Positions 1 through 1,570 of a stretch of 33,650 nucleotides of DNA are shown piece by piece (the first letter of the stretch is position 1; every line of letters starts with the position of its first letter). The notes beneath the pieces were generated by a model. The model was not told the DNA's origin, ran no database searches, and worked only from the letters and a program-made list of their open reading frames with translations. Position numbers and translations under genes: made by a program. Source of the DNA: Chromobacterium piscinae (lineage in GTDB: Bacteria; Pseudomonadota; Gammaproteobacteria; Burkholderiales; Chromobacteriaceae); the NCBI RefSeq assembly GCF_021129175.1, contig NZ_JAJOHV010000052.1:1-33650 (forward strand). The letters are read 5' to 3'.

Positions 1-835
1 CGGCAAGGAAGTGCTGGCGCGCGCCATCCACCAGGCCAGCCGCCGCGCCGGCCGGCCTTTCGTCGCCGTCAACTGCGGCGCGATTCCGGAAAACCTGCTG
101 GAGAGCGAGCTGTTCGGCCACGAAAAAGGCGCTTTCACCGGCGCCTCCGCCCGCCACGACGGCCTGATCCGCCAGGCCGACGGCGGCACGCTGTTCCTGG
201 ACGAGATCGGCGACATGCCGCTGCCGCTGCAGGTCAAGCTGTTGCGGGTGCTGCAAGACCGGGAAGTGCGGCCGGTGGGCGCCAGCCGGCCGCTGCCGGT
301 GGATATCCGGCTGCTGTCGGCCACCCACCGCGACCTGCCGGCCCGCATCGCCGACGGCCAGTTCCGCGAGGATCTCTATTACCGGCTGAACGTGGTGGCG
401 CTGACGCTGCCGCCGCTGGCCGAGAGGCGCGAAGACATCCCGCTGTTGGCCCAGCATTTCCTGCAACAGGTGGCGGCGCGCTACGGCAAGACGGTGACGG
501 GCTTCGCGCCGGACGCCCTCGCCTTCCTCGCCGCCGCGCGCTGGCCGGGCAATATCCGCCAGTTGGCCAATGTGGTGGAGCAGTGCTGCGTGCTGGCCAC
601 CGGCCCGCTGCTGACCCTGGCCCAGGTGGAGAAGGCGGTGGCCGGCGAATCCCGCGCCATCCCGACGCTGGCCGAAGCCCGCCGCGAGTTCGAGCGCGAC
701 TACCTGGAACGGCTGCTGCGCCTGACTGGCGGCAACGTCAGCGACGCCGCCCGGCTGGCCGACCGCAACCGCACCGAGTTCTACCGGCTGTTGCAGAAGC
801 ACGAGCTGCACGCCGCCGCGTTCAAGGACGACTGA
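1..835 (+). CDS. glrR: Sigma-54-dependent response regulator, GlrR/QseF type (5' truncated)
   Basis: This is the C-terminal part of a bacterial enhancer-binding protein. The reading frame is open from base 2 and begins inside the Walker A loop (GKE), so the receiver domain lies outside the window. In order it shows the sigma-54 contact loop GAFTGA, a Walker B region (TLFLDEIGD), an [10 protein letters not shown] segment carrying the Arg finger, sensor II (WPGNIRQL) and a C-terminal Fis-type helix-turn-helix. The tail ([20 protein letters not shown], then a KHEL and an FKDD end) closely follows what I recall of E. coli GlrR. GlrR is the response regulator of the GlrK/GlrR cell-envelope stress system and activates sigma-54 promoters from TGTC-N10-GACA sites. 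Two such sites and a sigma-54 promoter lie immediately downstream, which strongly supports GlrR over other NtrC-like regulators. The sensor kinase would be expected upstream, outside the window. Confidence 0.88.
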
Positions 836-840
836 ATGCC

Positions 841-858
841 TGTCGCCAAACAGCGACA
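841..858. promoter_or_regulatory. Predicted GlrR binding site 1 (TGTC-N10-GACA)
   Basis: The sequence TGTCGCCAAACAGCGACA matches the GlrR/QseF consensus TGTC-N10-GACA exactly and is almost a full inverted repeat, with outer arms CTGTCGC/GCGACAG at 840-859. It begins five bases after the stop codon of the glrR-like gene and is centred about 176 bases upstream of the predicted sigma-54 start site. It could also fold as a hairpin at the end of the glrR transcript, but no T-tract follows. Confidence 0.72.
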
Positions 859-907
859 GCGGCAAGTCATTGATTGGCATGAATTTTCAAGCAAGCGGCT
901 GGATCGC

Positions 908-925
908 TGTCGCCGAACGGCGACA
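908..925. promoter_or_regulatory. Predicted GlrR binding site 2 (TGTC-N10-GACA)
   Basis: The sequence TGTCGCCGAACGGCGACA is an 18-base perfect palindrome apart from its central AA. It differs from site 1 at only two positions, and both changes preserve the GlrR consensus. It is centred about 109 bases upstream of the predicted transcription start, a normal upstream-activator distance for a sigma-54 promoter. The two copies are 67 bases apart centre to centre. Confidence 0.75.
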
Positions 926-999
926 AATCCGGCTCCCTGGAGCGGCGCTTTCCCCGCCGTAAACCATCAAACAACTGATAAATAAGGAAAAACAAGCGC

Positions 1000-1015
1000 T
1001 GGCACGGCGCTTGCT
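1000..1015 (+). promoter_or_regulatory. Sigma-54 promoter for the BON-domain gene
   Basis: TGGCAC-N5-TTGCT matches the sigma-54 consensus at every core position. The -24 GG is at 1001-1002 and the -12 GC at 1013-1014, exactly ten bases apart. Transcription should begin near 1026, leaving a leader of about 120 bases before the BON-domain start codon. An AT-rich stretch at 961-990 between activator sites and promoter contains a weak IHF-like match (ATCAA-N4-CTG around 964-976), as expected for a looped promoter, but that site is not convincing on its own. Confidence 0.85.
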
Positions 1016-1147
1016 GTATCGGGAGTCAAGCGCGATTGGCCGCAAGGCGCTGCGGAACAGACGGCTCGGCGGAAATGCTTTCCTGCCGACACCGTCCCGG
1101 AACGCCGGCCGAACGCAACGACCTCACCCAGTCCTAGGAGACTCACC

Positions 1148-1498
1148 ATGCGCAAGACCCTGATCATCGCCAGCCTGATTCCCGCCCTGTACGCCGGCGC
1201 CGGCATCGCCGCGGAAACCAAGCAGACCGCCAGCTCGCCGGCGCAGGAACAAGCGGTTCAGAAGCACGCCGCCGCCACTCCCGCCGACGCGGAGCTGGGC
1301 CGCCAGATCAACGAAATCGTCGCCAAGTCCGCCGCTCAGCTGGGCGCCAAGGTCGAGGCTCAAGTCAACAACGGCGACGTGGTGCTGAACGGCACCGCGC
1401 CGAACCAGGACGTGGTCTCCCGCATCGCCGAGGAAGTGGCTCGCGTGCCGGGCGTGAAGAGCGTGCGCAGCCAAGTCAACCTGCTGCCCGCCGGCTAA
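1148..1498 (+). CDS. Secreted BON-domain protein (OsmY-like)
   Basis: This 116-residue protein has a signal peptide at residues 1-22 (MRKTLIIASLIPALYAGAG, cut near AGIAA/E), a short Gln/Ala-rich linker and one BON domain at about residues 47-116 with the typical G-V-x-L-x-G strand (NGDVVLNGTAP) and a VPGVKSV turn. BON domains are thought to bind phospholipid or other envelope surfaces, and OsmY has two; this protein has one and should be periplasmic. The start follows CTAGGAGACTCACC, a good ribosome binding site. It is a single-gene unit ending at a strong terminator. Control by the adjacent GlrR through sigma-54 is inferred from the sites upstream, which points to a role in envelope stress. 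Confidence 0.85.
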   Translation: MRKTLIIASLIPALYAGAGIAAETKQTASSPAQEQAVQKHAAATPADAELGRQINEIVAKSAAQLGAKVEAQVNNGDVVLNGTAPNQDVVSRIAEEVARVPGVKSVRSQVNLLPAG

Positions 1499-1546
1499 GT
1501 CAGATTTCGCCGTTCGTCTCGGACGGCAACCGTCCCGCATCCGTTT

Positions 1547-1570
1547 GCCCGCCGAAAGGCGGGCTTTTTT
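1547..1570 (+). terminator. Intrinsic terminator of the BON-domain gene
   Basis: A perfect 7-bp stem GCCCGCC/GGCGGGC with a GAAA tetraloop is followed by six T residues. It works in the plus direction only: read from the minus strand the stem is not followed by T residues. Confidence 0.92.

What the first reader, a model, noticed from the sequence alone, without database searches (positions are those of the whole stretch)
841..1498. Complete GlrR/sigma-54 circuit driving a BON-domain protein
Two near-identical palindromes match the GlrR consensus TGTC-N10-GACA exactly, followed by a perfect sigma-54 promoter and one secreted BON protein, all next to the GlrR-like gene itself. In enterobacteria GlrR is known mainly for glmY small RNA and rpoE. 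Here the closest target is an envelope protein, which suggests a local envelope-stress response in this lineage and a way to define GlrR's ancestral target. The motif matches are seen; regulation is inferred.
Basis: partly seen in the sequence, partly recalled or inferred. Interest (0 to 1): 0.75.

Follow-up and report, generated by a model that had tools for sequence, protein, structure and literature searches.

The report
GlrR switch with swappable envelope targets
A bacterial stress regulator known from gut bacteria appears to switch on a small secreted envelope protein through a control stretch that is conserved in many relatives, while the gene wired to that stretch differs from lineage to lineage.

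Summary
In detail: two TGTC-N10-GACA palindromes (841-858, 908-925), an exact sigma-54 promoter (1000-1015) and a lone BON-protein gene (1148-1498) directly follow a truncated glrR (2-835). In relative G012 glrR is complete and preceded by a histidine kinase and a lipoprotein in QseG's position. All 16 further GlrR-bearing family loci fetched keep the palindrome pair and promoter; GlrR and BON occur together in 17 of 37 family genomes and neither in 20. Palindrome-to-promoter distance varies in about 10.4-bp steps. The gene behind the promoter differs by lineage: BON, opgG or opgH (periplasmic glucans), bactofilin, glycine-zipper, EF-hand and, in one family, a candidate small RNA. So the circuit is well supported by comparison and conserved, but BON as ancestral target is not established. 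Regulation is inferred; there are no expression or binding data here.

The parts
2..835 (+). glrR-like gene, 3' part (AAA+ domain with GAFTGA, Fis-type HTH); 5' end lost at contig edge
   Evidence: Pfam Sigma54_activat, HTH_8; NCBIfam GlrR best; complete in G012, L057
841..858 (.). GlrR site 1, TGTC-N10-GACA
   Evidence: binding untested
863..875 (.). IHF-like site 1 between the palindromes, exact to YAANNNNTTGATW
   Evidence: binding untested
908..925 (.). GlrR site 2, TGTC-N10-GACA, 67 bp from site 1
   Evidence: binding untested
968..980 (.). IHF-like site 2, one mismatch, at the commonest offset (-32 from the -24 box)
   Evidence: binding untested
1000..1015 (+). sigma-54 promoter TGGCAC-N5-TTGCT, 92 bp from the start of GlrR site 2
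1026..1147 (+). 5' leader (start inferred from the -12 box), AGGAG at 1136-1140
   Evidence: read from the sequence; start site is inference
1148..1498 (+). single-BON-domain protein, 116 aa, signal-like N terminus
1543..1570 (+). rho-independent terminator-like site

Best explanation
A GlrK-GlrR two-component system drives its downstream neighbour, a secreted BON protein, by the mechanism known for glmY in E. coli. Phosphorylated GlrR binds two sites; IHF bends the DNA between them and again next to the promoter; the GlrR AAA+ assembly then contacts sigma-54 RNA polymerase and opens the promoter. The BON protein goes to the periplasm and most likely supports the envelope. Shown here: the parts, their spacing, their conservation and their linkage to GlrR. 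Inferred: binding, activation, the signal, export and the role of BON.
For: All 16 fetched GlrR-bearing family loci keep the pair (65-68 bp apart, at most 1 mismatch per site) and a sigma-54 box with at most 1 mismatch. GlrR (over 400 bits) and BON are both in 17 of 37 family genomes, neither in 20. Single palindrome plus promoter: 14 of the 17 and 2 of the 20, reversed-pattern control 0. Distance to the promoter is periodic: 10.4 bp, R 0.76 in 47 non-redundant promoters, 0 of 2000 random sets as high. IHF-like sites: 24 exact and 47 with at most 1 mismatch of 83 between the palindromes (shuffled 0.1, 2.9), 37 and 63 of 83 before the promoter (shuffled 0.5, 6.0). E. coli: IHF-assisted activation of glmY by QseF/GlrR (PMC6075780, passages). 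Own genome has rpoN.
Against: No expression or binding data. E. coli glmY differs: 63 bp between its last two sites and 107 bp from the last to -24, which does not fit the 10.4-bp series. Of 10 fetched order relatives with GlrR outside the family, 4 have a full pair with promoter just after glrR (one with 96-bp spacing), 3 a single palindrome with promoter and 3 neither there, though G051 and G049 also have a site divergent from the operon. Two GlrR-less family genomes, G008 and G035, match the looser pattern. GlrR is under the NCBIfam cut-off. The lipoprotein in QseG's position shows no detectable similarity to E. coli QseG and no family match, and the kinase is only 32-35% identical to the E. 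coli one over its matched parts. IHF-like sites are absent by my rule in G009 and G002; the IHF shuffles keep base composition only.
Confidence: 0.85

Rival explanations
1. The palindromes serve another enhancer-binding protein or a different DNA-binding protein, and proximity to glrR is incidental.
For: The genome has 7 places matching the activator query, GlrR included. Of the 118 pattern loci, 35 have no good sigma-54 box, among them Treponema and Stenotrophomonas loci; 19 of the 83 with a box have no GlrR within the fetched stretch.
Against: 64 of 83 promoter loci found without reference to genes hold GlrR; exact pairs occur in 9 of 12 GlrR-bearing and 0 of 11 GlrR-less family genomes sampled; the motif is the published GlrR consensus (PMC4987338, passages).
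Confidence: 0.06
2. The promoter is GlrR-dependent, but its main output is feedback on the kinase rather than envelope protection: the BON protein reports envelope state to GlrK.
For: The target usually lies beside the regulator genes (54 after glrR and 8 divergent, of 83); GlrK/QseE depends on a periplasmic partner in E. coli (PMC6075780, passages); the own genome has no second exact palindrome pair.
Against: Targets in other lineages include glucan-synthesis enzymes and bactofilins, unlikely as kinase partners.
Confidence: 0.12
3. Chance: ordinary GC-rich sequence resembling three motifs.
For: 2 palindromes per window are reached in 5 of 100 shuffles.
Against: Conserved spacing, phase and linkage.
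Confidence: 0.01

Closest known systems
GlrK/GlrR (QseE/QseF) with glmY in E. coli and other Enterobacteriaceae
   Same: kinase - lipoprotein - glrR gene order, TGTC-N10-GACA sites, IHF-like sites between and after them, sigma-54 promoter (PMC6075780 passages)
   Different: Target is a BON protein downstream of glrR instead of a small RNA upstream of the kinase gene; two sites instead of three; 92 bp instead of 107 bp to -24; the lipoprotein is not recognisably QseG by sequence
QseF/GlrR activation of rpoE P2 in E. coli
   Same: sigma-54 promoter with GlrR-type sites, envelope output (PMC6075780 passages)
   Different: Target is a sigma factor; rpoE sites were not inspected here
OsmY / DolP BON proteins (recalled from general knowledge)
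   Same: BON domain, secreted
   Different: Single BON domain and GlrR-type control here; those have two BON domains and other control (recalled, no call)

Membership tests
GlrR response regulators | Receiver, AAA+ with GAFTGA, Fis-type HTH | tested here: met
   Full G012 protein aligns end to end with E. coli GlrR incl. receiver; AAA+ and HTH_8 in window
GlrR response regulators | NCBIfam NF011695 equivalog cut-off 763 bits | tested here: not met
   588.7 bits, though best of all models by 171 bits; hence GlrR-like orthologue candidate, not an equivalog by that rule
GlrR response regulators | Histidine kinase gene upstream | tested here: met
   G012: 467 aa, HisKA and HATPase_c above cut-off; no GlrK-specific model hit; outside the window
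GlrR response regulators | QseG lipoprotein gene between kinase and glrR | tested here: inconclusive
   162-aa protein with LLAAC box in that place; no family match and no similarity to E. coli QseG
GlrR response regulators | Binds TGTC-N10-GACA | not testable with these tools
   Sites present and conserved; binding untested
sigma-54 promoters | TGGCAC-N5-TTGC[AT] with GG and GC fixed | tested here: met
sigma-54 promoters | rpoN in the genome | tested here: met
IHF sites | WATCAANNNNTTR (consensus recalled), either strand | tested here: met
   863-875 exact; 968-980 has one mismatch; binding untested
BON-domain proteins | Pfam BON above cut-off | tested here: met
   43.3 bits against 27; genome has 5 BON matches in 4 places
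BON-domain proteins | Export to the periplasm | not tested
   Signal-peptide-like N terminus read by eye only

The most novel reading that the evidence does not exclude
GlrR in Betaproteobacteria is a conserved control module with an exchangeable output slot: two GlrR sites, two IHF-like sites and a helically phased sigma-54 promoter stay beside glrR, while lineages plug in different genes (BON, opgG or opgH, bactofilin, glycine-zipper, EF-hand) or, in one family, an undescribed small RNA that parallels GlmY.
Probability: 0.7. Interest if true: 0.75.

Novelty: new variant of a known kind. Interest (0 to 1): 0.6.

Why it matters
GlrR is known from enterobacteria through small RNAs and rpoE. Here a very similar enhancer layout is found in many Betaproteobacteria with protein targets that point to the periplasm, envelope or cell shape. 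This gives a direct handle on what the kinase senses and a natural series of promoters in which enhancer distance changes by about whole helical turns. It also offers a clear case of output replacement behind a fixed regulatory stretch, and a candidate new small RNA family under the same control.

Tried and rejected
The first sigma-54 regex had a spacer of 4 instead of 5; its sigma-54 column was discarded. Chance alone: rejected on conservation. Palindromes as terminators or repeat elements: rejected because they stay paired, phased and GlrR-linked. BON as ancestral target: not established; with rows cut by locus ends left out (L123, G001, L148, L222) BON needs 5 changes on the GlrR tree (7 before), and both repeated gain and loss fit. 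The tree is the quick one; the careful search did not finish, and long branches may misplace deep rows. Rfam: no match in L149 at gathering score, while GlmY was found in the E. coli locus. RNAalifold on 7 small-RNA rows gave 12 pairs, 1 of them compensatory, so the RNA case rests on the promoter, the invariant 3' block, the terminator and the fold of one member (z -5.8). Short open frames of up to 43 codons start inside these RNAs and are not excluded as genes, but most run past the terminator. control: the pattern read backwards hit 2 of 399 genomes.

Rows dropped: 35 of 118 loci (28 without a box by my rule, 7 with two mismatches) left later counts. Of the 54 after-glrR sites 12 are 'other'; of these L123, L148 and L191 end too soon after the promoter, L222 is cut, and L149 is the small RNA. 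A look-alike of the L222 gene in G223 (L267) matches both my BON and EF-hand models (E 5e-18 and 3.8e-12), so those classes are not fully separate. G028 (259 bits) was not counted as GlrR; 34 of 399 order genomes matched the near-exact single-site pattern; reversed control 1 of 399. The class models were built from the same loci that they classify.

Full report
What is there. The window starts at the first base of its contig, inside a gene for a sigma-54 activator. Its last 277 residues (2-835) match Sigma54_activat and HTH_8. The gene is followed by TGTC-N10-GACA at 841-858 and 908-925, an exact TGGCAC-N5-TTGCT at 1000-1015, a 116-aa BON protein at 1148-1498 and a terminator-like site at 1543-1570. 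The next likely gene, 1578-2378, is on the other strand, so the BON gene stands alone. Two elements were not in the finding: an exact IHF-like site at 863-875 between the palindromes and a one-mismatch site at 968-980 before the promoter.

The regulator. In G012, nearly identical over the overlap (printed as 100%; I see at least one substitution against), the gene is complete. It aligns end to end with E. coli GlrR, including RNRTEFY-[RK]-LL in the DNA-binding domain and GAFTGA; identity of the window part to E. coli GlrR is 61.6%. NCBIfam GlrR is the best model by 171 bits, but its cut-off is not reached. Upstream in G012 lie a 467-aa histidine kinase (HisKA, HATPase_c), 32-35% identical over its matched parts to the E. 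coli kinase region, and a 162-aa protein with a lipobox in QseG's position. That protein has no family match and no detectable similarity to E. coli QseG, so only position and type agree. The own genome has one sigma-54 gene match. The genus is inferred: relative G007 carries a contig of the same length, 395,173, as one of Chromobacterium subtsugae.

Conservation in the family. Of 37 family genomes searched, 17 have GlrR above 400 bits and the same 17 have a relative of the BON protein; 20 have neither. Because the genes are adjacent, one deletion can remove both. The 16 further GlrR-bearing family loci, all fetched, each have two palindromes 65-68 bp apart and a sigma-54 box, each with at most one mismatch. 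Fifteen of the 16 have a BON gene behind it; in G001 the contig ends there and a BON gene stands near the end of another contig. For exact pairs, 9 of 12 GlrR-bearing and 0 of 11 GlrR-less family genomes in that sample matched; the own genome has only this one place. With one palindrome plus promoter, 14 of 17 and 2 of 20 matched. Of 10 fetched order relatives outside the family, 4 have a full pair, 3 a single palindrome with promoter and 3 neither just after glrR.

A gene-blind test. In 83 of 118 a sigma-54 box with at most one mismatch lies 55-130 bp beyond the second palindrome on the better of two strands; 0 of 714 single-strand control stretches had one, 15 had a two-mismatch one. In 64 of the 83 a GlrR gene of at least 55% identity lies in the same locus, in some cut by its end: 54 with the site within 500 bp after glrR, 8 with the site divergent upstream of the operon, 2 elsewhere. 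The other 19 have no GlrR within the fetched stretch.

Geometry. The two palindromes are mostly 65-67 bp apart, within a search range of 63-68. The distance from the second palindrome to the -24 box clusters at 60-62, 70-74, 80-84, 90-94, 101-103 and 110-114 bp, with a few values between or beyond (106, 118, 123, 127, 128). For 47 promoters left after merging similar ones, the best of the periods listed is 10.4 bp, R 0.76; 0 of 2000 random sets reached it; for all 83 the best is 10.2. The phase is the same with and without GlrR in the locus (R 0.80 of 31, 0.68 of 16). An IHF-like site lies most often 32 bases before the -24 box (43 near matches at that very offset). E. coli glmY shows an exact IHF-like site at almost the same place before its third GlrR site and a one-mismatch one before the promoter, but its 107 bp distance does not fit the series.

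What the promoter drives. Of the 83 loci: BON 25, bactofilin 12, opgG 8, opgH 7, glycine-zipper 5, EF-hand 4, other 22. Names were checked on one representative each: BON, bactofilin, MdoG, glycine zipper and EF-hand by Pfam, MdoH by NCBIfam above cut-off (1250.6 against 829). Of the 54 after glrR: BON 22, opgG 7, opgH 7, glycine-zipper 4, EF-hand 2, other 12. All 8 divergent ones are bactofilins. On a quick GlrR tree of 82 rows the classes follow lineage: Chromobacteriaceae and Oxalobacteraceae mostly BON, Comamonadaceae opgG or opgH, Rhodocyclales bactofilin (one branch, support 95), glycine-zipper on deep branches; 20 changes in all against 45.4 in shuffles, 17 when four cut rows are left out. 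So the slot beside glrR has been refilled several times, mostly with genes that point to the envelope, periplasm or cell shape. Exceptions exist, such as a cyanophycin-synthase-like gene (L211).

A candidate small RNA in the same slot. In family f23 the promoter after glrR is followed by a 64-134 nt stretch (start inferred) that ends in an invariant AGAGTGCGCCTTG-N-GGGG and a terminator (L254-L259 and named MAG locus L149). None of my target-class models matches there, and no open frame of 55 codons or more starts within 450 nt in L149; short frames exist. The core occurs in 8 of 399 order genomes, once each, all 8 among the 12 f23 genomes of that sample. L277 and L281 also follow a glrR end, with weaker sites. 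One member folds far better than shuffles (z -5.8). This parallels GlmY in E. coli, but Rfam shows no match (L149 only).

How it most likely works. The kinase phosphorylates GlrR; GlrR binds the two sites; IHF bends the DNA; the AAA+ assembly opens the sigma-54 complex; the BON protein is made and exported. Site architecture is shown; binding, signal and output are inferred from E. coli and Salmonella work (PMC6075780, passages; PMC4987338, passages).

Prior work. The GlrR consensus, glmY, glmZ and rpoE are published; GlrR is noted in beta-proteobacteria from KEGG (PMC8895600, passages). Searches found: GlrR with Betaproteobacteria, 0 papers; QseF with BON domain, 0; BON domain with RpoN, 1, unrelated by title; periplasmic glucans with sigma-54, 2, seen as listings and not opened; two mixed searches, 59 and 71 papers of which 12 each were listed. 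No listed title concerns these targets. Francke 2011 names a QseF-like class, and the passages seen name no BON or glucan target. The library lacks most subscription papers, so this is not proof of absence.

Noticed in passing
L254-L259, L149, L277, L281: Candidate new small RNA behind the GlrR promoter right after glrR, invariant AGAGTGCGCCTTG-N-GGGG before a terminator in 7 aligned members; core in 8 of 399 order genomes, all in family f23.
   Followed up: partly
L062, L064, L065, L066 (G002, G005, G013, G018), downstream of glrR: In one Chromobacterium clade the BON protein carries a run of 17-18-residue repeats (such as DASAPAEQAQRATAAKG) before the BON domain.
   Followed up: no
L111:1603-1815, L112:1639-1815, L088:1264-1461: Second GlrR-type promoters away from glrR drive short signal-bearing Ala/Ser/Gln-rich proteins without Pfam match in G033, G025 and G032.
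   Followed up: partly
L105, L106, L100, L107: Further GlrR-type promoters before a WecG/TagA-type glycosyltransferase, a bactofilin, a two-domain BON protein and an unknown protein of 424+ aa.
   Followed up: partly
L086 (Mitsuaria sp. 7 plasmid): Kinase, small protein and glrR-like gene followed by opgG and mdoH on a plasmid, with a palindrome pair (one mismatch in the second) and exact sigma-54 box between.
   Followed up: partly
L113:2106-2306, L118:5648-5854, L185:1657-1854: Conserved ORF of 66-69 codons between the GlrR promoter and opgH in 6 Comamonadaceae loci.
   Followed up: no
window 991-1015: A 9-pair inverted repeat overlaps the sigma-54 promoter, with the -24 box in its loop.
   Followed up: no
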